A stretch of DNA of 47,973 bases from Longimicrobium sp. (lineage in GTDB: Bacteria > Gemmatimonadota > Gemmatimonadetes > Longimicrobiales > Longimicrobiaceae), in NCBI RefSeq assembly GCF_035474595.1, contig NZ_DATIND010000094.1:1-47973 (forward strand), in the 5' to 3' direction. Positions 1 to 47,940 of this stretch are shown one piece after another. The translations under genes were made by a program, and so were the position numbers. The notes under the pieces are model-generated. The model was not told where the DNA came from and searched no databases. It saw only the letters and a list, made by a program, of their open reading frames with translations. Positions within the stretch are counted from its first letter, which is position 1; each line of letters starts with the position of its first letter.

Positions 1-163
1 CGGATCCGGATCCGCGCGGCCGTCCATCATTCCGGGACGACCCGGGCGAAGCGTGGACGCGCCGAAACGCTGGCATTCCCCGCCCCGCCCGCGTAATCAT
101 CCTGCACCCGCCGGCGCGGTGAGCCGTTCCTCGTCCACCGAATCCTCTCTTCCTCGCCGTCCC

Positions 164-1486
164 ATGACCCTGCTCCCCGCCCGCTCCCTCCCCTCCGGCG
201 CCCATCTCGCTCGTCCGACGAACATCCGGATTCGCTCGCGGCGGCGCTGGCGGGCGGCGGCCGTGCCGGCGCTGGCGCTGTTCGCGGCGCCGCTCGCCGC
301 GCAGGACTCGCTGGCGGCGCTGCTGCGGGCGAACGCGCACCCCATGCAGGCGAACGCCGACGGGCGCCTGACCGGCGCCGGCGCCGAGCTGCTGCTGGCG
401 GCGGGACGCGACGCGCAGTTCTTCCTCATCGGCGAGGAGCACGGGGTCGCCGAGGTCCCGCGGGTGGCGGCGGGTCTCTTCCGCGAGCTCGCGCCGGCCG
501 GGTACCGACACCTGGCCATCGAAACGGGCGAGTTCCTGGCGGCGGAGCTCAACCGGCGGGTGCTGGCCGATACGAACGGCGCCGCGTACGCCGCGTTCGG
601 GCGCGAGCACTTTCCCGGCGCGCTCTTCTACAACTGGCGCGAGGACGCGGCGCTGCTGCGCACCGCCGTCCAGGCGGCGGGCGGGCGCCAGGACGTGCTG
701 TGGGGGCTGGACTACGACGTCGTGGCCGATCGCTACACCCTGCGCCGGCTGCGCGACATCGCCCCCACGCCGCGTGCCCGCGCGGCCGCGGACGCCGTGA
801 TCGCGCGCGCGGACAGCGCCCTGCGGCAGGCGCTCGCCACGCGGAACCCCGGGCTGCTGATGATGTTCGGCGGCCCCGACGACGTGTACGCGCCGCTGCG
901 CCAGGCGTACGCGCCGGAGCCGGGCTCCGAGGCGGACCGCATCATCGGGCTGATGGAGACCACGCGCCAGATCAACGCTTACTTCGGGCGGGGCGAGGGG
1001 TATCTGTCCAACCTGCAGCGCGCGCGGCTGAACAAGTGGCAGTTCATGCGCTTCCTCGATGCCGCGACGGCCAGGGACGGGCGAATGCCGCGGGTGATGA
1101 TGAAGTTCGGCGCGAACCACATGATGCGCGGGCGCAGCTTCACCAACGTCTTCGACCTGGGCACGCTGGCATCGGAGATCGCCGACGTGAACGGCAGCCG
1201 CTCGTTCGGCGTGCTGATGCTGGGCGGCGCGGGGACCATGCACGCGGCCGTGGACCCCCGCGTCTTTCGCTCGGTGGAGGCGCCGGTGGAGGTGGAGCCG
1301 TGGGCGCAGCCGTTCTACGATGCGGCCGACGCGCGGCAGTGGACGGTGCTGGACCTGCGCCCCATCCGCGCCCGGATCCCGCGGCTGGGCACCCTGCCGG
1401 CCGAGACGCTCCAGGTGCTGTACGGCTTCGATGCCGTGGTGATCCTCTCCGGCAGCGGCCCCCAGCACGACCCCGGGATGGAGTGA
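164..1486 (+). CDS. Exported ChaN/erythromycin-esterase-like protein
   Basis: 440 aa. The ATG at 164 is preferred over in-frame codons further upstream because it is followed by a basic stretch and a hydrophobic core (about residues 22-46) ending in LAAQ, a signal peptide. The mature part opens with FFLIGEEHG and, some 20 residues on, HLAIETGEF. Near the C-terminal third is MMKFGANHMMRG. This GE.HG plus G.NH pattern is shared by the erythromycin-esterase-like and ChaN/TraB-like hydrolase families, whose acidic and histidine residues line an active site. Function is inferred from these motifs only; substrate unknown. It is monocistronic, followed by an inverted repeat and a convergent gene. 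Fold assignment moderate, specific activity unsupported. Confidence 0.7.
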   Translation: MTLLPARSLPSGAHLARPTNIRIRSRRRWRAAAVPALALFAAPLAAQDSLAALLRANAHPMQANADGRLTGAGAELLLAAGRDAQFFLIGEEHGVAEVPRVAAGLFRELAPAGYRHLAIETGEFLAAELNRRVLADTNGAAYAAFGREHFPGALFYNWREDAALLRTAVQAAGGRQDVLWGLDYDVVADRYTLRRLRDIAPTPRARAAADAVIARADSALRQALATRNPGLLMMFGGPDDVYAPLRQAYAPEPGSEADRIIGLMETTRQINAYFGRGEGYLSNLQRARLNKWQFMRFLDAATARDGRMPRVMMKFGANHMMRGRSFTNVFDLGTLASEIADVNGSRSFGVLMLGGAGTMHAAVDPRVFRSVEAPVEVEPWAQPFYDAADARQWTVLDLRPIRARIPRLGTLPAETLQVLYGFDAVVILSGSGPQHDPGME

Positions 1487-11714: not shown

Positions 11715-13814
11715 ATGCTCGACAGCCTGCTCCGCCCGAAGTCCATCGCCGTCGTCGGCGCGTCGCGGACGCCGAACACCATCGGGTACCAGATCCTCGA
11801 CAACCTGCTGATCCACGGCTTCACCGGCGCCGTCTACCCGGTGAACCCGACGGCCGAGGCGGTGCACTCCATCCGCGCGTACCCGTCCGTCGAGGCGATT
11901 CCCGACGAGGTGGAGATGGCGGTGGTCGTCGTCCCCAAGCAGCACGTGTGCGCCGTGGCCGAGGCGTGCGGGCGGAAGGGGGTGAAGGCGCTGGTCGTCA
12001 TCTCCGCCGGCTTCAAGGAGGTCGGCGGCGCGGGCGTGGAGCGCGAGGCGGCGCTGCGCGACACCGTGCGGCGGTACGGGATGCGCCTCGTCGGCCCCAA
12101 CTGCATGGGGGTGCTGAACACCGCGGCCGAGGTGGCGATGAACGCCACCTTCGCGCCCAACATGCCGCCCGCCGGCCCGGTCGCCTTCCTCAGCCAGTCC
12201 GGCGCGATGGGCGTCACCATCCTGGACTACGCGGCCGAGTACGGCATCGGCATCTCGCAGTTCGTCTCGGTGGGCAACAAGGCCGACGTCAGCGGCAACG
12301 ACCTGATCGAGTACTGGGCGGGCGACGAGCGCACGCGCGTCATCCTCATGTACCTGGAGAACTTCGGGAACCCGCGCACCTTCACCCGGCTGGCGCGCGA
12401 GATCACCAGGACCAAGCCCATCATCGTGGTGAAGAGCGGCCGCTCGTCCGCCGGCGCGCGCGCGGCGAGCTCGCACACGGGCGCGCTGGCGGGCGCGGAC
12501 AGCGCCATCGACGCGCTCCTGCGCCAGTGCGGCGTGCTGCGCGCGGAAACGGTGGAGGAGATGTTCGACCTGGCGATGGCCTTCTCGCACCAGCCCATCC
12601 CGCGCGGCAACCGCGTGGCCATCGTCACCAACGCGGGCGGGCCGGGGATCATCATCGCCGACGCGTGCGAGGCGCACGGGCTGGCGGTGACGGAGCTGAC
12701 GGAGGCCACGCGCGCGCGGCTGGCCACGCAGCTTCCCGAGGAGGCGTCGGTGAACAACCCGGTGGACATGATCGCCTCCGCCACCGCGCAGTCGTACCGC
12801 CTGGCCGTCGAGGCGGTGCTGGAAGATCCGAATGTCGATGCCGTCATCGCCACCTTCGTCCCCCCGCTGGGCGTGCGGCAGGAGGACGTGGCCGAGGCGA
12901 TCGTGGACGTGGCGCGCGGGAGCGGCAAGCCCGTGCTGGCGGTGCTGATGGGGCGCGACGGGCTGCCGCAGGGCCTTGCCGAGCTGAACGCGGCGGGGAT
13001 CCCCGGCTACCGCTTCCCCGAGTCCGCCGTGCGCGCGCTGGCCGCGATGCACCGTCAGGGCGTGTGGCGGCAGCGCCCCGTCGGCGAGGTGCGCGAGTTC
13101 CCCGCGGACCGCGCCCGGGTGGAGCGCATCGTTGCCGCCGCGCGCGGCGAGGGGCGCGAGAAGCTGTCGGAGACGGAGGTGATGACGGTGCTGGAGGCGT
13201 ACGGCATCCCCACCGCCCCGCACCACGTGGCGCGGACGGTGGAGGACGCGGCCGCGGCGGCGGGGGAGATCGGATGGCCGGTGGTGCTGAAGGTCCTGTC
13301 GCCGCGCATCATCCACAAATCCGACGTGGGCGGGGTGGTGGTGGGGGTGGAGGACGAAGACGAGCTGCGGCGCGCGTGGACGCAGGTGGCGGTCGAGGCG
13401 CCGCGCCTCGCGGGGATCCCGGCCGGCGAGGTGGACGGCGTGCTGGTGCAGAAGATGGTGGGCGGGGGGAAGGAGACCATCGTGGGGATGACCAGCGACC
13501 CGCAGTTCGGGCCGGTGCTGATGTTCGGCCTGGGCGGGATCTACGTCGAGGCGCTGGGCGACGTCGTCTTCCGCGTGCAGCCGGTGACCGACGTGGACGC
13601 GCGCGACATGGTGCGCTCCATCCGCGGCGTGAAGCTGCTGCAGGGCGTGCGCGGCGAGCCGGCGAGCGACCTGGCCGCCGTGGAAGAGGTCATCGCCCGC
13701 GTCTCGCAGCTCGTCGGCGACCACCCGCAGATCCGGGAGATGGACGTGAACCCGTGGCTCGCCTTCCCCAAAGGCGGCGTGGCGGTGGACGGGCGGATCT
13801 CCATCCGCCCATAG
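11715..13814 (+). CDS. ADP-forming acetate/acyl-CoA synthetase, fused alpha-beta
   Basis: 699 aa. It interconverts acyl-CoA, ADP and phosphate with free acid, CoA and ATP. Residues 1-460 are the CoA-binding and ligase (alpha) part: IAVVGASRTPNTIGYQILDN, SAGFKEVGG, GPNCMGVLN, SQSGAMG, and catalytic His254 in ASSHTGAL. Residues from about 480 are the ATP-grasp (beta) part with PVVLKVLSPRIIHKSDVGGV, KETIVGM and MDVNPWL. No GNAT domain follows, so it is not the Pat-type protein acetyltransferase fusion. Monocistronic. Acetate versus branched or aryl acid specificity cannot be read. Confidence 0.93.
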   Translation: MLDSLLRPKSIAVVGASRTPNTIGYQILDNLLIHGFTGAVYPVNPTAEAVHSIRAYPSVEAIPDEVEMAVVVVPKQHVCAVAEACGRKGVKALVVISAGFKEVGGAGVEREAALRDTVRRYGMRLVGPNCMGVLNTAAEVAMNATFAPNMPPAGPVAFLSQSGAMGVTILDYAAEYGIGISQFVSVGNKADVSGNDLIEYWAGDERTRVILMYLENFGNPRTFTRLAREITRTKPIIVVKSGRSSAGARAASSHTGALAGADSAIDALLRQCGVLRAETVEEMFDLAMAFSHQPIPRGNRVAIVTNAGGPGIIIADACEAHGLAVTELTEATRARLATQLPEEASVNNPVDMIASATAQSYRLAVEAVLEDPNVDAVIATFVPPLGVRQEDVAEAIVDVARGSGKPVLAVLMGRDGLPQGLAELNAAGIPGYRFPESAVRALAAMHRQGVWRQRPVGEVREFPADRARVERIVAAARGEGREKLSETEVMTVLEAYGIPTAPHHVARTVEDAAAAAGEIGWPVVLKVLSPRIIHKSDVGGVVVGVEDEDELRRAWTQVAVEAPRLAGIPAGEVDGVLVQKMVGGGKETIVGMTSDPQFGPVLMFGLGGIYVEALGDVVFRVQPVTDVDARDMVRSIRGVKLLQGVRGEPASDLAAVEEVIARVSQLVGDHPQIREMDVNPWLAFPKGGVAVDGRISIRP

Positions 13815-14140
13815 CCGTTCCGCCCGCTCCCTCACGACGTTCTTGCCCACCCGCGGGCGCCGGCATCCTGCCCCGAACGGCGGCTCGCGCAAACGCGCCG
13901 ATTTTCTCGCAATCGTAGCCTCTGCGTGCCGGTACGCCGGCCAGCGACGGCTCACCTCGATTCGCGCCTGCGTCGAACGCCCGTTTCGCGGCAACCACCG
14001 CACCCGTTGACCGGGCGTGATCCGCGCCGCGGTGTCGAGGCGGATGCTGGCGCGGCGCTTGCTTCCACGCGCGCTCCGGACCGCCGCTGCTCCAGGCAGC
14101 GGCGGCACTCCGCGCTCGATCCCGATCAGTGGGGTTGGCC
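13815..14140. other. 326-base gap without a gene
   Basis: GC-rich leader region of the Ig-like lipoprotein gene. No convincing coding frame, hairpin or repeat was found, and no clear promoter. Confidence 0.5.
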
Positions 14141-17041
14141 ATGAACCTCCATCGCGCCCTCTCCCTCGCGCTCGCCGCCTTCGTGATCTCGGCCGTCGCC
14201 TCGTGCGCCGGCGACGGCGGCTCGCCGACCAGCTCCGGCCCCAACGCCTCGCCCGGCAGCCAGACGCGCCCGAACAGCACGCAGCTCGTGCTGGCGAGCG
14301 GCGGCAACCAGACCGGCGTCGCGGGCCAGCCACTGCCCAACCCGGTCGCGGTGCGCGTGCTCGACGCCACCTCGAGGCCGGTGTCCGGCGCCACGGTCAA
14401 CTTCATCGCCAGAGACGGCTCGGCGGACCCGACGCAGGCCAGCACCGACGCGGACGGCTACGCGCGAACCACCTGGACGCTGGGCACCGCCGCCGGCACG
14501 CAGGAGCTGCGCGTCTCCGGCACCGGCGGAACCACCCTCGTCGTCGGTGCGACGGCCGTCGCGCCGGCGAAGGTGGCGCGGGTGCAGGTGATCCCCGACT
14601 CGCTGGTGCTGTCCCAAGGCGCGACAGGCGGCTTCTCCGCTGTCGCGTACGACTCCACTGGAAACGCGCTGACCGGCCGCGCCATCACCTGGGCCTCATC
14701 CGACAGCGTGGTCGCCACGGTGAGCTCCACGGGCTCGGTGACCGCCGTGTCGCCCGGCGCCGCGACCGTGACGGCGACGGTGGAGGGCGTCGGCGGCACG
14801 GCGAAGGTGATCGTCTCCTCACCGCCGCGCGTGCGCGTCGCGAGGGTGAAGGTGGAGCCCGACTCGCTCGCGCTCCAGCCCGGGCAGACGGGCGACTTCA
14901 ACGCCGTCGGGTACGACTCCGCCGGGAACGTGCTCACCGGCCGCGCCGTCTCGTGGACGATCTCCGACTCCACGGTGGCGCACATTTCCGGTGAGGGCGC
15001 GGTGACGGCGCTGTCCGCGGGCACGGCGCGGGCGACCGCGACCGTGGAGGGCGTCAGCGGCACGGCGAAGGTGATCGTTTCCCCGCCGCCTCCCGCGACC
15101 GTCGCGCGGGTGGTCGTGTCGCCCGACTCGGTCGTGCTGCAGCCGGGCCACACCGCCGACCTGGACGCCGCGGCGTACGACGCCGAGGGGCACGTCCTCA
15201 CCGGCCGCGCGGTCACCTGGACGACGTCGGATTCCACCATCGCGCGCGTCGGCGCGGACGGCATGGTGACGGCGGTCGCGGCCGGCACGGCGCGGGCCAC
15301 CGCCACCGTCGAGGGCGTCGGCGGCACCGCGAAGGTGATCGTCGTCGCGCCGCCGCCCGCGGCCGTCGCGCGCGTCGCCATCGTCCCCGACTCGCTGGTG
15401 CTGGACGTGGGCGGCAAGGGCGACTTCGACGCGGTCGCCTACGACGCCGAGGGGCACGTCCTCACCGGCCGCGCGGTTGCCTGGACTTCGAGCGACAGCA
15501 CCGTGGCCGTGATCGGCGTCGGCGGCGCGGTGACGGCGCGATCACCGGGGAACGCGCGCATCTCGGCCACCGTCGAGGGCGTCAGCGGCTCGGCGATGGT
15601 GATCGTGCACACCCCGGTGCCGGCCATCGTGCGGGTGGAGGTCGTGCCCGACTCGCAGGTGGTGGTGATCGGGCACACGGCCGACTTCAGCGCCTTCGCC
15701 TACGACGCCACGAATCACATCGTCAGTGGTCTCGCCGTCACCTGGAGCATCTCCGAACCGACCGTGGCGCGCATCGGCCAGTATGGCCTGGTGACCGCGC
15801 TCGCCGCCGGGACGGCGCGCGTCACCGCCACGGTGGAGGGCGTGAGTGGCTCCGCGACGGTGCGGGTGATCGAGCAGCCGGTGGGAAGCGCCTCCGCGCC
15901 AACCAACACGACGCCCGATCTCCGTGCCGGGTATGACTACGTCTGCCGGCTGCGCTCGGGCATCATCCAGTGCTACGGCGACGATGACGAGGGCCAGCCC
16001 ATCGGCGAGCACCACGCCGCGAGCGGCAGCTTCGTTCAGCTGACCGCCGGGCAAACGCACGCCTGCGGGCTGCGCAGCGACGGCGTGGTGGAATGCTTCG
16101 GGTCCAGCCAGTACGGCGAGGCTCCGGCGCAGAAGCGCGCCGCCACCGGATCGTTCACCCAGGTGAGCGCCGGCCTGAACCACAGCTGCGCGATTCGCGG
16201 CGATGGCGCGATGGAATGCTGGGGGAACGATTCACACGGCGAGGCACCGCCGCTCTGGACCGCGCAGAGCGGGCGATTCGTGGTGGTGACGGCGAACGCG
16301 AACCGCACGTGCGCGCTGCGGAACGACGGAGTGGGGGAGTGCCGGGGCTTCCGCCTGGGAGACCCGTCCATCAGGATCCTCCCGGGCGGCTGGTACGTGA
16401 TGCTGGGGACGTCGACCGGCACCAGCTTCTGCCTGCAGCGGAATACGGGTGAGGAGGAGTGCTGGGGCGACCAGCAGGTGAACCTCGGCTCGGGACCGTT
16501 CGTGGATCTGACGGTGGGTGGAAATCAGGTATGCGTCCTCCGGCCCGACGGACACGCGAACTGCGCGGGCTACGCCCCATCGTGGCAGGGGCCGGGCGAG
16601 CGCAGCGTGACGGGGCCGGATGAGGGCAGCGTGACGCCGCGGACGTGGGCACGTCTCACCGCCGGGACGTATCACACCTGCGGGTTGCGGCGGGACGGCT
16701 ACTTCGAGTGCTTCGGGCTCCAGACGATCGGCTCGGACGCGCCCGACGTGGTCCCCTGGGCCGACACGCCCACGTCCGCCCCGAGCGGCGGGTCGGTGCG
16801 CGTCTCCTGGCGCGACATCAACTCGAACGAGCTGCGCACGGAGATCGACCGCAGCGTGGCCGATGCCGACGGCAATCCCACCACGTGGGCGCGTGCCGGC
16901 GTGCTGGGCGCGAACACCACGGGGTTCACCGACGGCCAGGCGACTCCCGGTGCGATCTACGTGTACCGGATCCGCGTGTGCAACAACGCGGGATGCTCCG
17001 GGTGGGCGCAGTCGAACGCGACGCGCTATCCGGCGGCGTAA
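14141..17041 (+). CDS. Lipoprotein with five BIG2 repeats and RCC1-like propeller repeats
   Basis: 966 aa. The ATG at 14141 gives a lipoprotein signal with lipobox Cys22 (ISAVASCAG). Residues 45-140 form an Ig-like (Big-1-like) domain with RDGSADPTQASTDADGYA. Five 88-aa BIG2 repeats follow, starting near 144, 232, 319, 407 and 495, each opening with a VARVxVxPDSLVL-like strand and closing with TATVEGVxGTAKVIV. From about 596 to 870 there are RCC1-like blades (SAGLNHSCAIRGDGAMECWG, AGQTHACGLRSDGVVECFG) with paired Cys. A fibronectin-like C-terminus (VRVSWRDINSNELRTEI) ends the protein. It is likely a surface or periplasmic adhesion or carbohydrate-contact protein; no enzyme motif. Confidence 0.85.
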   Translation: MNLHRALSLALAAFVISAVASCAGDGGSPTSSGPNASPGSQTRPNSTQLVLASGGNQTGVAGQPLPNPVAVRVLDATSRPVSGATVNFIARDGSADPTQASTDADGYARTTWTLGTAAGTQELRVSGTGGTTLVVGATAVAPAKVARVQVIPDSLVLSQGATGGFSAVAYDSTGNALTGRAITWASSDSVVATVSSTGSVTAVSPGAATVTATVEGVGGTAKVIVSSPPRVRVARVKVEPDSLALQPGQTGDFNAVGYDSAGNVLTGRAVSWTISDSTVAHISGEGAVTALSAGTARATATVEGVSGTAKVIVSPPPPATVARVVVSPDSVVLQPGHTADLDAAAYDAEGHVLTGRAVTWTTSDSTIARVGADGMVTAVAAGTARATATVEGVGGTAKVIVVAPPPAAVARVAIVPDSLVLDVGGKGDFDAVAYDAEGHVLTGRAVAWTSSDSTVAVIGVGGAVTARSPGNARISATVEGVSGSAMVIVHTPVPAIVRVEVVPDSQVVVIGHTADFSAFAYDATNHIVSGLAVTWSISEPTVARIGQYGLVTALAAGTARVTATVEGVSGSATVRVIEQPVGSASAPTNTTPDLRAGYDYVCRLRSGIIQCYGDDDEGQPIGEHHAASGSFVQLTAGQTHACGLRSDGVVECFGSSQYGEAPAQKRAATGSFTQVSAGLNHSCAIRGDGAMECWGNDSHGEAPPLWTAQSGRFVVVTANANRTCALRNDGVGECRGFRLGDPSIRILPGGWYVMLGTSTGTSFCLQRNTGEEECWGDQQVNLGSGPFVDLTVGGNQVCVLRPDGHANCAGYAPSWQGPGERSVTGPDEGSVTPRTWARLTAGTYHTCGLRRDGYFECFGLQTIGSDAPDVVPWADTPTSAPSGGSVRVSWRDINSNELRTEIDRSVADADGNPTTWARAGVLGANTTGFTDGQATPGAIYVYRIRVCNNAGCSGWAQSNATRYPAA
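14572..15880 (+). repeat. Five in-frame tandem repeats of about 264 bp
   Basis: Nucleotide repeats encoding the BIG2 domains, beginning near 14572, 14836, 15100, 15364 and 15625. The third and fourth units share long identical stretches (for example GGGGCACGTCCTCACCGGCC), suggesting recent duplication or gene conversion. Confidence 0.8.
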
Positions 17042-17179
17042 CCCCCCGGCACCACCGGCGTGACGGCGAGTGGCTACGTCCTGCGTCCAGCGAGCCGGCC
17101 GAGGCGCGCGCCACCTCTTCTGGCGCGTAGCGCCGGACGTGGGCCGGGCGGCGCCGGAACCGATCGTTGCACCGGACCC

Positions 17180-17234
17180 GAAGCCTCGCGTAGTTTGCGA
17201 GGCTTCCCGTCGTTGCTGCCCGGCCTCGGCCGCC
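17180..17234 (+). repeat. Dispersed two-hairpin repeat, copy C (diverged)
   Basis: Diverged member. Second hairpin gcctcgc/gcgaggc is preserved; the first hairpin loop is CGAG instead of TGAA. The end of the repeat faces the AAA gene start 30 bases later. Confidence 0.65.
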
Positions 17235-17264
17235 CTTCCGGATCTCCGACCTCCGCCATCTCCC

Positions 17265-18761: not shown

Positions 18762-18860
18762 TCGGTAACAATCGGCTCGGGTGGCTAGCGGCAGCACGGG
18801 AACATATGATATGGTATTCTGAAGTCGCGACTCTGACACTTAAGAGACCATCTTAGGCCC

Positions 18861-19730
18861 ATGCCGAACGTTATCGAAGCATTCTCAAACGCCCGGCTCA
18901 CGCAAGGGGTGATCTTCACCTGTGCAAAAGCTGAAGGATATGAAGGGTGTGAGGTATCCGGTCTCATAATAACTGCTAGATGTGACGCGGCTCAGGACAA
19001 AACGGCGATCTACAACTATGTACCTGTTGTGCGACTTGAAGATTGGCTGCGACGGGATTTCCGGATCATCACCTGTGAGCGCGAGCAGAAAAATGTCCAT
19101 GGTAATCTTCGACAGGTATTGAAGTCCGCAGGTTACACCCCAGCAATCTTGGACATCCATCGGCCGAGAGCCGTCCTCGACACCCTCTTTCCCATCGATC
19201 ACCATCAGATGGCGATTCGGAAAGCACGAAAATCTTTCGAAAAATCTGTGGCTCAATTCGAGCTGCTGGAAGATGCATTGTCGTCGACGCCGGCTACGGT
19301 CGATCTCCCTAAGCTCCATCAGCAGTTCTCAGGCACTCACATGGCGGTTCTTCGGGAGTGCATTACTCAACAGCTAAGTGGGTACTATTTCTTAGAATCG
19401 ATCTCGCCGAACGATAAGGATGCGGCAGGGTTCGTGGTACTATTGCGCGAGATCCACCACTTACCAAAAGAATTAGCCGGAGAAGTTCCGGGGGGGATCG
19501 ATCAGAATGCCTACGAAGAGGTTTGCAATATCACTGAACTTGCGCGAGGGAAGCTCGAATTTACATCAGCTGATTTCTGTTTGCCCCTCGGACGTGTGCG
19601 ATCACCCGAAATAGAACATCTCATGCAAGCTTTCGCACTTCTATTCACTCGCGTGGGAATTGCGGATCCGGATCCCACCCTTCTCGATCGATTTCCGGCC
19701 CGGTATCTCGTCACCAGGGAGCCCGCATGA
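18861..19730 (+). CDS. Unknown protein, first gene of helicase cassette
   Basis: 289 aa, from the ATG at 18861 with no strong ribosome site. GC content falls to roughly half, clearly below the neighbours. I do not recognise a named domain. An N-terminal stretch QGVIFTCAKAEGYEGCEVSG then LIITARCDAAQDKTA resembles a family of small proteins that carry an (I/V)-x-(S/T)-x-x-C-D motif and turn up near defence genes. The middle is basic and helical (IRKARKSFEKSVAQFELLEDAL). The C-terminal half has FVVLLREIHHLP and ADFCLPLGRVRSPEIEHLMQ. Its stop overlaps the helicase start as ATGA, so the two are co-translated and probably work together. Confidence 0.75.
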   Translation: MPNVIEAFSNARLTQGVIFTCAKAEGYEGCEVSGLIITARCDAAQDKTAIYNYVPVVRLEDWLRRDFRIITCEREQKNVHGNLRQVLKSAGYTPAILDIHRPRAVLDTLFPIDHHQMAIRKARKSFEKSVAQFELLEDALSSTPATVDLPKLHQQFSGTHMAVLRECITQQLSGYYFLESISPNDKDAAGFVVLLREIHHLPKELAGEVPGGIDQNAYEEVCNITELARGKLEFTSADFCLPLGRVRSPEIEHLMQAFALLFTRVGIADPDPTLLDRFPARYLVTREPA

Positions 19731-22045
19731 TTAACGTAATTGTGGTGGATGACGGCGCAGCAGCCGAAATCATTGCAGAGCGCTCTCTGCAATCGACAGA
19801 GTTCCTGCAAGGCCGTATACTCGCAGAGATGCTAAGGAGCCGCAACGCTTCATCCGAACCGTTCTCGCCGAGGGTTCGATCCGGTGTTTTCGACGACGGT
19901 TTGTTCTTCCTCGGAGAAAAGTCCCGGGGCCATTTTCTTGTCTTCGATTTGGAGAATACTCACCTCTTCCGTGAATTCACTGCATCGGATGCATTAATTG
20001 TGTTCCAGAGGGTATGTCGATTTGCTGTAAGGATATGGGATAATCTAAAACTTAGTTCAAGCGAGCGGATGATCGCTGACTCCACCAAGGCGGCAATCTT
20101 TCCTTTTCGACTTCCGAACGAGTACCGGGTTACAGTCGAGCGTAAACCCGATGAGAAACGTGGTGAGAAGCGATTCGCTGGTAATCATCTGCTTGTCTAC
20201 CGAGGGGGTTACGATGAAGGGGGTGGTGCATTAGAAGTAGCGGAAATTAAAAATTTCCGTAACGCACTCCGAACAGTACAGTCAGCACGCAGCGCACTCC
20301 TTCGCACCCAAGTTGGCGGAAATCAGCCTGATGCAAATAGTGCGGCAGCACTGCGTGTGACACAGTTACAAACCGGAGAATCTGCCACATCTCTGAGCGG
20401 GCTAGGCTTTAACGAATGGCTTCCGTACCTAACCGAAGCTCAACGGGCGTTTGTCCGCCGCCCGATCTCTCGGGCAGAGCGAATCGAGGGCCCTGCTGGT
20501 ACAGGAAAGACTCTTTCATTGGTCCTTCGATGCATCGGGACGTTGCTTGAAGCGCAGCGTGCGAACATCGTGCACCACAGTATTTTTGTTGCCCATAGTC
20601 AAGCGACTGAAAAAACCATTCGAGGTCTCTTTTCTGAGATCGAGCCCGCCGGAGCCGATTTCTCCTCCCGCGAGCGCGCTCACGCCGACCAATCAGTAAT
20701 GATTACGACCCTTCAATCATGGTGTGCCTCGTTTTTGGGAGAGCGCCAGGTCAGTGAAAATCAATTCCTCGACCGCGATGCATTGGAGTCGAAGGAACTG
20801 CGATTAATGTACATTCTCGAGTCCTTACAAGAGGTAAAACAGACCGAGTTAGAAACCCACCGCCCTTTTCTATCGCCTGAGTTCGCGAACTTTATCGACA
20901 GGGAGGATGAATTTAATGTTGCAGAGATGATCCAGCACGAAATTTCTATCGTGATTAAGGGACGAGCTGACGAAAACTACGAGAGTTATCTCGCTCTGGC
21001 CCGGATCGACTACAACCTTCCGCTGCATTTCGATGGTGACAAAGGTTTAGTGTTTGCTGTTTTTCGTCGATATCGCGACAAGCTTGAAGCCATAGCGCAA
21101 TTTGACACTGACGATGTAGTCCTCACGACGATCGGACAACTTCACACACCGATTTGGCGTCGGCGCAGATCCCGCGAGGGGTTCGACTCCATCTTTATCG
21201 ATGAAACGCATCTGTTCAACTTGAATGAACTTTCAGTCTTTCACCATTTGACAAGAGAGCCTGGTACGTTCCCTATCATCTTTTCTGCCGATCGCTCACA
21301 GGCGCCAGGAGACCGCGGCCTCACGAATGCACTTTTGGACGAAACAATCGCCCCGCATTTGAACGATACGCTTGCAGTTCCAATGCGTGCTATCTTCCGC
21401 TGCTCTCCTGATATCACTGCTGTTGCCCTTTCGGTCACTGCATCAGGGGCGACGCTATTCACTACTTTTGATAACCCACTCTCGTCCGCGGCAAGCACCT
21501 TTACCGCGGCTGAAGAAAGGCTCGCATCTCCTCCCCTCTTACTGCTTTGTCCAACAGACGAGGAGATGGTTAGGGTCGCCATCGTTCGTGCCGAAAGAAT
21601 GGTAGCCGAATTGGGCTGCAAAAAAGCGGAGGTTCTCGTCGCTGTTTTCGGTGAGGCACTTTTTGAACTCTCACGTAGGGAATTTGAGCGCACGAACAAA
21701 CCGGTAGAGTTACTGCAACAGCGTGCCGACCTCGACGGCGTTCTTAGAGCAAAACAGCATGGACGATTTGTGCTTTCGACTGCTGATTACGTCGGTGGAT
21801 TGGAGTTTCAGGGCGCGATTCTTCTTGGCGTCGATGAAGGCCGGGTTCCTCCTACGAAGCTCTCCAGAACGGCAGATAGCAGGCACTTTCAAGACTTCCG
21901 GTCGCACAATCGGCTGTACGTCGCGATCACTCGTGCCAAGTATAGATTAGAATTCTTGGCATTAGCCGCAGAAGGTCCGAGCCCGATATTGAAAGACGCC
22001 ATTCGTCACCGCTTGGTCTCGGTGATACAATCTGACGAACGTTGA
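19727..22045 (+). CDS. Divergent UvrD-like SF1 helicase with unknown N-terminus
   Basis: 772 aa. Residues 1-250 match no domain I know. SF1 motifs follow: motif I GPAGTGKT (255-262), Ia IFVAHSQATEKTI, II FIDETHLF (Asp492, Glu493), III FPIIFSADRSQAP, IV MRAIFRCSPDI, V VGGLEFQGAILLGVDEGRVP and VI LYVAITRAKYRL. The usual DEAQD motif II is replaced by DETHL, and GDxxQ in motif III by ADRSQ. These changes mark a branch away from UvrD, Rep and PcrA. It is probably an ATP-driven DNA translocase or helicase. Lower GC than the chromosome and fused operon with the 289-aa protein suggest a transferred defence cassette. It is not Gabija: there is no OLD nuclease partner. Confidence 0.85.
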   Translation: MINVIVVDDGAAAEIIAERSLQSTEFLQGRILAEMLRSRNASSEPFSPRVRSGVFDDGLFFLGEKSRGHFLVFDLENTHLFREFTASDALIVFQRVCRFAVRIWDNLKLSSSERMIADSTKAAIFPFRLPNEYRVTVERKPDEKRGEKRFAGNHLLVYRGGYDEGGGALEVAEIKNFRNALRTVQSARSALLRTQVGGNQPDANSAAALRVTQLQTGESATSLSGLGFNEWLPYLTEAQRAFVRRPISRAERIEGPAGTGKTLSLVLRCIGTLLEAQRANIVHHSIFVAHSQATEKTIRGLFSEIEPAGADFSSRERAHADQSVMITTLQSWCASFLGERQVSENQFLDRDALESKELRLMYILESLQEVKQTELETHRPFLSPEFANFIDREDEFNVAEMIQHEISIVIKGRADENYESYLALARIDYNLPLHFDGDKGLVFAVFRRYRDKLEAIAQFDTDDVVLTTIGQLHTPIWRRRRSREGFDSIFIDETHLFNLNELSVFHHLTREPGTFPIIFSADRSQAPGDRGLTNALLDETIAPHLNDTLAVPMRAIFRCSPDITAVALSVTASGATLFTTFDNPLSSAASTFTAAEERLASPPLLLLCPTDEEMVRVAIVRAERMVAELGCKKAEVLVAVFGEALFELSRREFERTNKPVELLQQRADLDGVLRAKQHGRFVLSTADYVGGLEFQGAILLGVDEGRVPPTKLSRTADSRHFQDFRSHNRLYVAITRAKYRLEFLALAAEGPSPILKDAIRHRLVSVIQSDER

Positions 22046-22117
22046 TCCGCTCTGGCGGCCCGACAGCGGAGCCTCTACTTTTCGATAATCAATCACCTGA
22101 ACCGGACCGACACCTCG

Positions 22118-27678: not shown

Positions 27679-28824
27679 TTAGAACGGTAGATCATCCTCC
27701 GGCTCAACACGATCCAATCGCTTCTCTTCAGTAAGGAGTAGGTGCCGAGCACGCTGTAACAGTTCGTCGAAAGTGATAACTTCCGGGTTCACGAGGTTTC
27801 GCCGAAATAATTCGAACGAGGTGCGTTTCGTGATCGTGTCGAGTTGACGAGTGTGACCGATGATCAAAATACCTTTAGGCATTACCGTGTAGCTATGAGT
27901 CGTCTCAAGACGCCCCCGATTTTCTTCGTTCGTGGCGCCGTAGATTTCCCACGTGCGACAATTGGACTGAAGTTGTGCAACTCCGCCAGCCAGTTCTCTA
28001 CCGATCAGATGAACCTTATTTCGATACGGCTGATTTCCCACCAATGTACTATCAGGTGTTTTGATCTCAACAAGTACCGTGAAGCGAATTTCCGCTTCCG
28101 TCGCAGCAAGGAAATCCCCCTGCTGACCTCCTGTACCTGTTACGAGAGTACCTCCGTAATGCGGCTGAGTTTCAACAGGTGATAAAAAGCGATAAGAAAG
28201 ACCGTAACCGAAAATCCAAGTATTGTTTTCGAAAAAATTCTGCCACTCGCTTTCTGACCAATCGCCTGCAGTAAGGTGCACCTCGAACTCGACAACTGCT
28301 TGTTCTCGTATCTCGTGAAGTTTTGCAAGCGCAACTGCGCGGAATAGGTTTGGATTTAAATCACTCAACAGTTCCCAAAGCTGGTCGCCGGCACTTCCAT
28401 GCAATTCTTCTAGGATCTCCCTCGCTGGGCCCTTCACAATGAGCGCCTCATCCTCGTCAGCGACAACTAGTCGCCGCTTCCCGCGTGGGACACCATCTTC
28501 CCCTAGTCTATAAAGCCGCTCAAGCTCGCGGTACAGGTCCAACGTCTCGGCCGAATCCAACTGTATCCGAACCTCTTGTCCCGCCTTTAACTGAGTCAGA
28601 TTAAATGCATCAACGTCGTGCCACGGCGAGGAACTTGAATGTCGCCTCTGATGCAGAATACAGGCTTTTACTCGCGCCTCGTTGTTCTTGGGATTGTCGA
28701 TGATTTCCACGCGAAGAATTCGTCGAGTCCTCGCAGTGTCTTGATTCTCTGGTAGGTGAAGCCAAATGTCCTCAACTCTGGCCGTTCGCGACGACGTGCT
28801 CTCAACACGGTACGAGTGCGACAT
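27679..28824 (-). CDS. sduA: Shedu-type antiphage nuclease (SduA, DUF4263)
   Basis: 381 aa, ATG at 28824. The C-terminal part carries the Shedu PD-(D/E)XK core: ESEWQNFFENNTWIFGYGLS, then GGQQGDFL with Asp237, VLVEIKTP with Glu253 and Lys255, and GGVAQLQ. Later come MPKGILIIGHT and SFELFRRNLVNPEVITFDELLQRA, both typical. Shedu is a single-gene antiphage system that cuts DNA. The N-terminal 170 residues are the variable sensing part (RRILRVEIIDNPKNNEARVK) and match none I know. GC is markedly lower than the flanks, indicating transfer. No partner gene or integrase adjoins; the trans-sulfuration operon follows. Confidence 0.9.
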   Translation of the reverse strand: MSHSYRVESTSSRTARVEDIWLHLPENQDTARTRRILRVEIIDNPKNNEARVKACILHQRRHSSSSPWHDVDAFNLTQLKAGQEVRIQLDSAETLDLYRELERLYRLGEDGVPRGKRRLVVADEDEALIVKGPAREILEELHGSAGDQLWELLSDLNPNLFRAVALAKLHEIREQAVVEFEVHLTAGDWSESEWQNFFENNTWIFGYGLSYRFLSPVETQPHYGGTLVTGTGGQQGDFLAATEAEIRFTVLVEIKTPDSTLVGNQPYRNKVHLIGRELAGGVAQLQSNCRTWEIYGATNEENRGRLETTHSYTVMPKGILIIGHTRQLDTITKRTSFELFRRNLVNPEVITFDELLQRARHLLLTEEKRLDRVEPEDDLPF

Positions 28825-34353: not shown

Positions 34354-34384
34354 CCGGAATTCAACTCGAAGGCCCCCCGGAGAA

Positions 34385-34434
34385 GGGCGATTGAAATCGC
34401 GGCAACAACGGCCCGAAGTCCGCCTTCGCGGACT
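34385..34434 (-). repeat. Variant dispersed repeat, copy I
   Basis: First hairpin GCGAT/TGAA/ATCGC: a different stem with the same loop. Linker GCAACAACG is shared. Second hairpin is replaced by agtccgc/gcggact. Faces the small precursor's 3' end. Confidence 0.75.
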
Positions 34435-34510: not shown

Positions 34511-34568
34511 GAACAGCCTCGCGCAGTTTGCGAGGCTTCCCGTAGTTGTTGCCGCGGCTTCAGCCGCC
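34511..34568 (+). repeat. Dispersed two-hairpin repeat, copy G
   Basis: Canonical copy in plus orientation of the gene-facing end; followed by an octamer tract and then the ROK kinase stop codon. This shows the full order repeat, tract, gene. Confidence 0.85.
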
Positions 34569-38063: not shown

Positions 38064-38116
38064 AAAATGCGAGTGAACTCGCGGCTACAACGGCACACAG
38101 TCCGCCTTCGCGGACT
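38064..38116 (-). repeat. 53-bp variant repeat, copy J1
   Basis: Identical to 41938-41990 over 53 bases. First hairpin GCGAG/TGAA/CTCGC; second hairpin agtccgc/gcggact as in copy I. Faces the zinc-ribbon gene start. Confidence 0.85.
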
Positions 38117-41937: not shown

Positions 41938-41990
41938 AAAATGCGAGTGAACTCGCGGCTACAACGGCACACAGTCCGCCTTCGCGGACT
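41938..41990 (-). repeat. 53-bp variant repeat, copy J2
   Basis: Identical to 38064-38116. Faces the 3' end of the barrel protein gene. Confidence 0.85.
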
Positions 41991-47875: not shown

Positions 47876-47940
47876 GGCGACTAAAGTCGCAGCAACAACT
47901 ACGGGAAGCCTCGCAAACTGCGCGAGGCTGTTCGGCTCGG
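47876..47940 (-). repeat. Dispersed two-hairpin repeat, copy H
   Basis: First hairpin GCGAC/TAAA/GTCGC; second gcctcgc/gcgaggc; tail TGTTCGGCTCGG shared with copy D. It faces back toward the M1 fusion gene, about 370 bases away. Confidence 0.8.

What the first reader, a model, noticed from the sequence alone, without database searches (positions are those of the whole stretch)
18861..22045. Uncharacterised two-gene helicase cassette, a candidate defence system
Seen: two genes with a 4-base ATGA overlap, both near 50 % GC against about 70 % outside, inserted between an AAA ATPase gene and a small membrane protein gene. Gene 1 (289 aa) has no domain I can name. Gene 2 is an SF1 helicase with aberrant motifs (DETHL in motif II, ADRSQ in motif III) and a 250-aa unknown N-terminus. 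Knowledge: UvrD-like helicases partner nucleases in Gabija and other antiphage systems, but the partner here is not OLD-like. Inference: a transferred defence or DNA-conflict module of a new type. Gene 1 may be the sensor or effector.
Basis: partly seen in the sequence, partly recalled or inferred. Interest (0 to 1): 0.72.

Follow-up and report, generated by a model that had tools for sequence, protein, structure and literature searches.

The report
MazF-fold protein plus helicase defence pair
A foreign two-gene cassette found in one genome and absent from its relatives pairs a DNA/RNA-unwinding motor with a protein shaped like the bacterial toxin MazF; the same pair travels on plasmids, prophages and phage satellites, often beside known antiviral genes, so it is probably a not-yet-named bacterial antivirus system.

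Summary
Two tightly coupled genes (289 aa and 772 aa, ATGA overlap, GC 0.517/0.515 against 0.715 for the rest of the window, third-position GC about 0.52 against 0.97) form a 3.3-kb insertion. Two relatives of the same genus keep the empty site; all nine other genomes searched in the genus lack the helicase. Relatives of both genes occur together in the same order in 13 of 13 complete pairs, gap 13 bp or less, with matching divergence (Mantel r 0.97). They sit on plasmids, a P2-like prophage at the old/tin position, a P4-like satellite, and next to Septu, BREX, PD-T4-2-like and multiubiquitin genes; Shedu lies 5.6 kb away in this window. The helicase is an intact UvrD-like SF1 enzyme; its 'aberrant' motifs are family signatures. 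The 289-aa protein has no sequence-family match, but its predicted structure has the MazF/CcdB toxin fold (Z 11.8), split by a helical insert of about 110 residues, with the usual MazF catalytic residues apparently replaced. Best reading: a helicase-sensor plus MazF-fold-effector antiphage system, not named in the libraries held here. Defence is likely; the effector chemistry is unproven.

The parts
18762..22093 (.). whole inserted segment (about 3.3 kb), absent from the same place in two same-genus genomes
   Evidence: blastn and alignment against L027 and L028; boundaries good to about 10 bp on the right; no terminal repeat longer than 6 bp found
18762..18860 (+). leader of the cassette, presumed promoter and ribosome-binding region
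   Evidence: sequence; no consensus sigma-70 site found in the leader, so the promoter is inference
18861..19730 (+). gene 1, 289 aa, predicted MazF/CcdB-fold protein with helical insert
   Evidence: ORF; AlphaFold2 pLDDT 70.8; Foldseek and VIA-align to MazF
18891..19034 (+). first half of the MazF-like barrel (residues 11-58), with conserved QG(T/V/D)(I/V)(F/I) and TA(R/D)CD motifs
19035..19370 (+). helical insert of about 110 residues (59-170) that interrupts the barrel
   Evidence: secondary structure of the model; MazF matches span 11..264 with about 104 aligned residues
19371..19658 (+). second half of the MazF-like barrel and C-terminal helix (residues 171-266), conserved LRE, SP..E..MQ and RxG
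19727..22045 (+). gene 2, 772 aa, UvrD-like SF1 helicase
   Evidence: Pfam UvrD-helicase E 3e-5 and ResIII E 2e-6; Foldseek UvrD/PcrA/Rep E down to 1e-15; VIA-align Z 21.7
19727..20305 (+). N-terminal domain of gene 2 (residues 1-193), fold not assigned
   Evidence: modelled with blocks mostly at pLDDT 80-90, but the PDB rows cover 226-772
20489..20512 (+). motif I (GPAGTGKT)
21200..21211 (+). motif II (DETH)

Best explanation
It is a horizontally acquired two-gene antiphage (or anti-mobile-element) system of the helicase-plus-effector kind. Shown by computation: the two genes form one insertion, travel as a unit across phyla, sit on mobile elements and beside known defence genes; gene 2 is a UvrD-like SF1 helicase with intact motifs; gene 1 is predicted to have the MazF/CcdB toxin fold with a helical insert. 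Inferred: the two proteins form a complex; the helicase (with its own N-terminal domain) senses abnormal nucleic acid made during phage or plasmid replication; ATP-driven movement then releases or licenses the MazF-fold protein, which acts on RNA (or another host target, as CcdB does on gyrase) through a non-canonical conserved site and stops the infected cell.
For: Insertion with empty sites in two relatives; helicase absent from the other 9 genomes of the genus; only 2 of 395 phylum genomes have gene 1, the other being a distant pair. Pair conserved in order with gaps of 13 bp or less in 13 of 13 complete loci, Mantel r 0.969, p about 2e-4. Carriers: conjugative E. coli IncF plasmids (113 of 5,426 genomes have a match, none on a chromosome); plasmids of Azoarcus, Paraburkholderia, Leisingera, Agrobacterium; P2-like Klebsiella phage between portal and presumed replication genes, the position that Rousset et al. 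describe as a defence hotspot (PMC9122126); P4-like satellite next to its integrase. Neighbours: Septu PtuA E 2e-125 / PtuB E 1e-73 and a type IV restriction enzyme; BREX PglZ E 5e-277 / BrxL E 2e-296; PD-T4-2_A E 6e-45 with an HEPN gene; multiubiquitin/E1 operon; Shedu here. Four of 13 loci have a strict known-defence neighbour; the published baseline for all E. coli genes is 2% within 10 genes, 17% for known defence genes (PMC13092281). Gene 1 fold: VIA-align Z 11.8, rmsd 2.4-2.7, 101-104 of 103-106 residues of MazF-mt3; all 50 rows shown are MazF-family, Kid or CcdB. Helicase motifs intact.
Against: No experiment. Gene 1 lacks any sequence-family match; Foldseek E-values to MazF are only 0.4-2; profile comparison with MazF is weak (score 14.0, one of 40 shuffles exceeded it). 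The MazF catalytic arginine and threonine do not appear to be conserved, by my alignment by eye, so RNase activity is not established. Several carriers (Caulobacter, Leisingera, Azoarcus) have no recognised defence neighbour. The 2% baseline comes from E. coli and a different detection method.
Confidence: 0.5

Rival explanations
1. Gene 1 is not an enzyme. The barrel and its helical insert bind nucleic acid or protein and load the helicase, which itself blocks phage or plasmid replication. Still a defence system, but the helicase is the effector.
For: MazF catalytic residues seem absent while the fold is kept; CcdB shows that the fold can serve without RNase activity (VIA-align rows); the helicase is the better conserved partner (33-46% against 27-37% identity to the window protein).
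Against: A distinct, nearly invariant set (Q15, G16, G34, T38, A39, C41, D42, R196, Q256, G266) looks like an active or binding site rather than a scaffold.
Confidence: 0.25
2. A toxin-antitoxin-like addiction module that stabilises plasmids and prophages: MazF-fold toxin, with the helicase as its neutraliser.
For: MazF/CcdB fold; carriage on conjugative plasmids and prophages.
Against: A natural locus with gene 1 intact and gene 2 broken exists: Rhizobium pRSpC104a, with an IS21-family element where the rest of the helicase should be. This argues against gene 2 being an essential antitoxin. A 772-aa helicase would be an unusual antitoxin. Broken gene 1 with intact gene 2 is also seen in E. 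coli plasmids.
Confidence: 0.12
3. An accessory DNA-repair or replication module unrelated to defence.
For: UvrD-like helicase; imuA/dinB or SOS genes are near it in Paraburkholderia and Leisingera.
Against: Absent from close relatives, sparse, on mobile elements, next to Septu, BREX, PD-T4-2-like and Shedu genes; partner has a toxin fold.
Confidence: 0.1
4. A diverged member of a named helicase system (Gabija, Nhi, AbiO, Hachiman or Rst helicase-DUF2290).
For: Partial matches of the helicase to GajB, AbiO and Nhi models (E 5e-9 to 5e-6).
Against: Matches cover only short motif stretches; no GajA, HamA or DUF2290 match for gene 1 homologues; predicted MazF fold of gene 1.
Confidence: 0.03

Closest known systems
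Hachiman (HamA nuclease + HamB helicase)
   Same: Two-gene system, small effector plus large helicase; the helicase senses abnormal DNA and unleashes the effector (PMC12278908)
   Different: HamB is a DEAD-box-type (SF2) helicase and HamA a DNA nuclease; here an SF1 UvrD-like helicase and a MazF-fold partner; no HamA/HamB match
Gabija (GajA + GajB)
   Same: UvrD-like SF1 helicase as one of two genes; the helicase gives partial GajB matches
   Different: GajA is an OLD-family ATPase/TOPRIM nuclease; gene 1 is not; the helicase has an extra N-terminal domain and DE(T/L/M)HLF in motif II
MazF/PemK/Kid and CcdB toxins
   Same: Predicted fold of gene 1 (Z 9-12 over nearly the whole MazF chain)
   Different: Helical insert of about 110 residues; canonical catalytic residues apparently missing; no MazE- or CcdA-type antitoxin gene; helicase partner instead
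[quoted passage not shown]
   Same: A MazF-like protein used against phages
   Different: SMA acts as a single protein; here a strictly paired gene with a helicase
PsyrTA (helicase + DprA-like partner)
   Same: Helicase pair that has been called both toxin-antitoxin and antiphage (general knowledge)
   Different: Partner is DprA-like there, MazF-fold here

Membership tests
Gabija | OLD-family (ATPase-TOPRIM) partner GajA | tested here: not met
   no GajA, AAA or TOPRIM match for gene 1 in PADLOC, Pfam, NCBIfam; predicted fold is MazF-like
Gabija | full-length GajB helicase match | tested here: not met
   best match E 5e-9 with best stretch 674-740 only
Hachiman | HamA effector plus SF2 helicase HamB | tested here: not met
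   no HamA or HamB match for the pair; helicase is SF1 UvrD-like
Rst helicase + DUF2290 | DUF2290 partner | tested here: not met
   no DUF2290 match among 16 gene 1 homologues at E up to 1 against Pfam-A
MazF/PemK toxin | MazF/CcdB SH3-like barrel fold | tested here: met
   VIA-align Z 11.8 to MazF-mt3, 101-104 residues, rmsd 2.4-2.7; model pLDDT 70.8
MazF/PemK toxin | PemK_toxin (PF02452) sequence profile | tested here: not met
   no match at E up to 1 in 16 homologues; profile-profile comparison near shuffle level
MazF/PemK toxin | catalytic arginine (RPxxV) and threonine (P[IV]TS) | tested here: inconclusive
   positions read as G(L/I/V) and PV in gene 1 homologues, but the register is from secondary structure and alignment by eye
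MazF/PemK toxin | small antitoxin gene next to it | tested here: not met
   in 13 loci the only coupled gene is the helicase
CcdB gyrase poison | C-terminal gyrase-binding residues | not tested
   only the shared fold was seen (Z about 10)
SMA (single-protein MazF-like) | works as a single protein | not testable with these tools
   needs expression of gene 1 alone; genomically it is nearly always paired
antiphage defence system (general) | enrichment near known defence genes and on mobile elements | tested here: met
   4 of 13 loci with strict known-defence neighbours, 5 with the multiubiquitin operon; P2 and P4 positions
antiphage defence system (general) | reduces phage plating in a host | not testable with these tools
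   needs a plaque assay

The most novel reading that the evidence does not exclude
A new kind of immune effector: a MazF/CcdB-fold protein with a different catalytic site (TA(R/D)CD, LRE) and a helical gate, held silent and then switched on by a UvrD-like SF1 helicase that senses invader replication.
Probability: 0.35. Interest if true: 0.75.

Novelty: new variant of a known kind. Interest (0 to 1): 0.62.

Why it matters
Helicase-plus-effector pairs are a growing class of bacterial immunity, and each new effector shows what can be coupled to a nucleic-acid sensor. Here the effector candidate has the fold of a classic toxin but an altered conserved site, and none of the libraries or open papers searched names it. 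About 2% of complete E. coli genomes carry the pair on plasmids, so it can be tested at once in laboratory strains.

Tried and rejected
The AAA ATPase upstream is not part of the system: it is at the same place in relatives that lack the cassette. Gabija, Hachiman and helicase-DUF2290 were rejected on the partner protein. Viral scans with gene 1 alone and with the distant branch found nothing new. A sweep of 399 genomes of the order of the Collimonas carrier found only that carrier. Sequence-profile comparison of gene 1 with MazF and a profile search of solved structures gave no reliable match; only the fold comparison did. Paper searches by accession and by domain words found no description of the pair; the supplement of the DefensePredictor paper, which may list it, could not be read. 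No terminal repeats or recombinase in the insertion, so the way it integrated is unknown. Counting broken copies in E. coli plasmids hints that gene 1 is lost more often per base than gene 2, but copies are clonal and some frameshifts may be sequencing errors. No PDB match covers the N-terminal domain of gene 2; it was not folded alone because no structure jobs remained.

Full report
Observation. The two genes are real and as described. Gene 1 is 18861-19730 (289 aa), gene 2 is 19727-22045 (772 aa), joined by an ATGA overlap. Their GC is 0.517 and 0.515 while the rest of the window, leaving out this island and a second one, is 0.715; at third codon positions they have 0.53 and 0.51 against 0.97 in the AAA gene next door. 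The segment contains the lowest-GC 3-kb window of the contig.

Insertion. In two genomes of the same genus the AAA ATPase gene (85% and 69% identical protein) is followed directly by the 41-codon membrane-type ORF that follows the cassette here. The homologous flanks meet within about 146 and 208 bp there, whereas 3.3 kb (about 18762-22093) lies between them here. The helicase is absent from the other nine genomes of the genus. In 395 genomes of the phylum only one other, distant, gene 1 was found, itself followed by a helicase of this family. I found no terminal repeat or recombinase.

A conserved pair. Protein searches found the pair on plasmids of Azoarcus, Paraburkholderia, Leisingera, Agrobacterium and many Escherichia/Klebsiella plasmids, the E. 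coli ones examined being IncF, in a P2-like Klebsiella phage, in IMG/VR contigs, and in Collimonas, a Caulobacter MAG and a betaproteobacterial MAG. In all 13 complete loci compared, gene 1 lies immediately upstream of gene 2 on the same strand, with a gap of 13 bp or less and a 4-base overlap in six. The identity matrices of the two proteins correlate at r = 0.969 (Mantel, 5,000 permutations, none reached it). In complete E. coli genomes 113 of 5,426 have a match, all on plasmids, none on a chromosome.

Surroundings. Collimonas L009 has Septu PtuA/PtuB (E 2e-125, 1e-73) and a type IV restriction enzyme just upstream; the betaproteobacterial MAG L011 has BREX PglZ and BrxL (E 5e-277, 2e-296) immediately upstream; the viral contig L014 has a PD-T4-2_A/NsnA-like GmrSD gene (E 6e-45 to 4e-68) with a RiboL-PSP HEPN gene, between the pair and an integrase. 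Agrobacterium plasmids L039/L040 have the pair beside a multiubiquitin/ThiF/DUF6527 operon with further helicases, in two different orientations. In the P2-like phage the pair lies between the portal gene and the presumed replication gene (gp36); Rousset et al. describe the interval between gpA and gpQ as the old/tin hotspot of P2-like phages (PMC9122126). L015 looks like a P4-like satellite, with integrase, then the pair, then a P4-alpha-type primase. In this window a Shedu gene (SduA N and C domains, E 5e-22 and 8e-31; PADLOC SduA E 2.5e-59) lies 5.6 kb downstream in a second low-GC island, and is likewise absent from the rest of the genus. Strictly counted, four of 13 independent loci have a named defence gene within 10 kb. 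The published figure for E. coli is 2% of all genes and 17% of known defence genes within 10 genes of a known defence gene (PMC13092281). At 2%, four or more of 13 would occur about once in 10,000 trials (my arithmetic). The baseline is from another species and method, so this is support, not proof.

Gene 2. Pfam gives ResIII and UvrD-helicase (E 2e-6, 3e-5). Motifs I, Ia, II, III, IV, V and VI are all present and conserved in 13 homologues; the unusual DE(T/L/M)HLF and DxxxQ are family signatures. The predicted structure (pLDDT 72.8, pTM 0.44) matches UvrD, PcrA and Rep best (Foldseek E 1e-15; VIA-align Z 21.7 over 411 residues with a high rmsd of 11, as expected if the domains are placed differently). 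Residues 1-193 form a separately modelled domain without an assigned fold. PADLOC gives only partial GajB, AbiO and Nhi matches.

Gene 1. No match in Pfam, NCBIfam, PADLOC or PHROGs for the window protein, and none convincing for 15 homologues. The AlphaFold2 model from seven sequences has pLDDT 70.8 and pTM 0.67. Foldseek's PDB list is dominated by MazF (probability up to 0.91, but E 0.4-2). VIA-align gives Z 11.8, rmsd 2.4-2.7, 101-104 of 103-106 residues of MazF-mt3; all 50 entries shown are MazF-family, Kid or CcdB. The match runs over model residues 11-264, so the barrel is interrupted by a helical insert at about 59-170. Some of the better viral-library hits are also annotated PemK-like. 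Sequence comparison does not carry this by itself: hhalign against ten MazF proteins from related genomes scored 14.0, and one of 40 column shuffles exceeded that. Residues conserved in 16 homologues are Q15, G16, G34, A39, C41 and D42 (invariant) and T38, R196, Q256, F262 and G266 (nearly so). The MazF catalytic arginine and threonine positions appear replaced (inference from secondary-structure register). So the protein may use a different site, or may lack catalysis as CcdB does.

Mechanism. Shown by computation: one mobile unit; a helicase with intact motor motifs; a partner with a toxin fold; defence-type surroundings. Inferred: complex formation, sensing by the helicase and effector action by gene 1. 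The precedent for the logic is Hachiman, where the helicase restrains and then unleashes the nuclease (PMC12278908); the precedent for MazF-like proteins in defence is SMA (PMC12829572). A natural copy with gene 1 intact and the helicase broken by an IS (Rhizobium) argues that gene 2 is not an antitoxin whose loss kills. Copies with gene 1 broken and gene 2 intact also exist. Both are weak evidence.

Novelty. A 2024 list of helicases of known defence systems (PMC12278908) and PADLOC 2.0 contain no full match to this pair, and no open paper found describes it. Databases after 2023, subscription papers and supplements could not be checked. I rate it a new variant of a known kind: a helicase-effector system with an unreported MazF-fold partner.

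Limits. The family sample is small and biased to Pseudomonadota and plasmids; the neighbour count is not from a random sample; gene 1's fold rests on one moderate-confidence model; function is untested.

Noticed in passing
window 27679-28824, - strand: A complete Shedu (SduA) antiphage gene, 381 aa, GC 0.505, in a second low-GC island; absent from the nine other genomes of the genus. Together with the cassette it makes this stretch a small, recently assembled defence region.
   Followed up: yes
window 14129-17041, + strand: A 970-aa secreted-looking protein with repeated Ig-like and RCC1-like segments sits where two relatives have less than 1 kb between the homologous flanks (window 13807 to 17254), so it seems to be another insertion, but with normal high GC.
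   Followed up: partly
window 17180-17214, 34382-34434, 34515-34547, 38069-38116, 41943-41990, 47897-47929: Short dispersed repeats (about 35-50 bp) shared with places in related genomes; probably a genus-specific repeat family.
   Followed up: no
L011 3840-11641: In a betaproteobacterial MAG the gene 1/helicase pair directly follows BREX pglZ and brxL, as if it were a cargo or an accessory of that BREX locus.
   Followed up: partly
L040 1418-15005 and L039 12001-24828: Agrobacterium plasmids combine multiubiquitin, ThiF-type E1, DUF6527, a UvrD-PDDEXK protein with a Peptidase_M78 domain, a response-regulator-like gene and a HamB-like DEAD helicase with the pair: a dense conflict island.
   Followed up: partly
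L003 20767-22562: A second, short UvrD-like helicase (518 aa, partial GajB match) with an 80-aa partner lies 6.5 kb downstream of the pair on the Paraburkholderia plasmid; it may be another unnamed helicase system.
   Followed up: no
L041 9992-10564: A Shewanella plasmid gene of 190 aa carries only the first part of the gene 1 family (VRQGDI ... ITADCDIAQ) and no annotated helicase next to it; truncated copy or a stand-alone relative.
   Followed up: no
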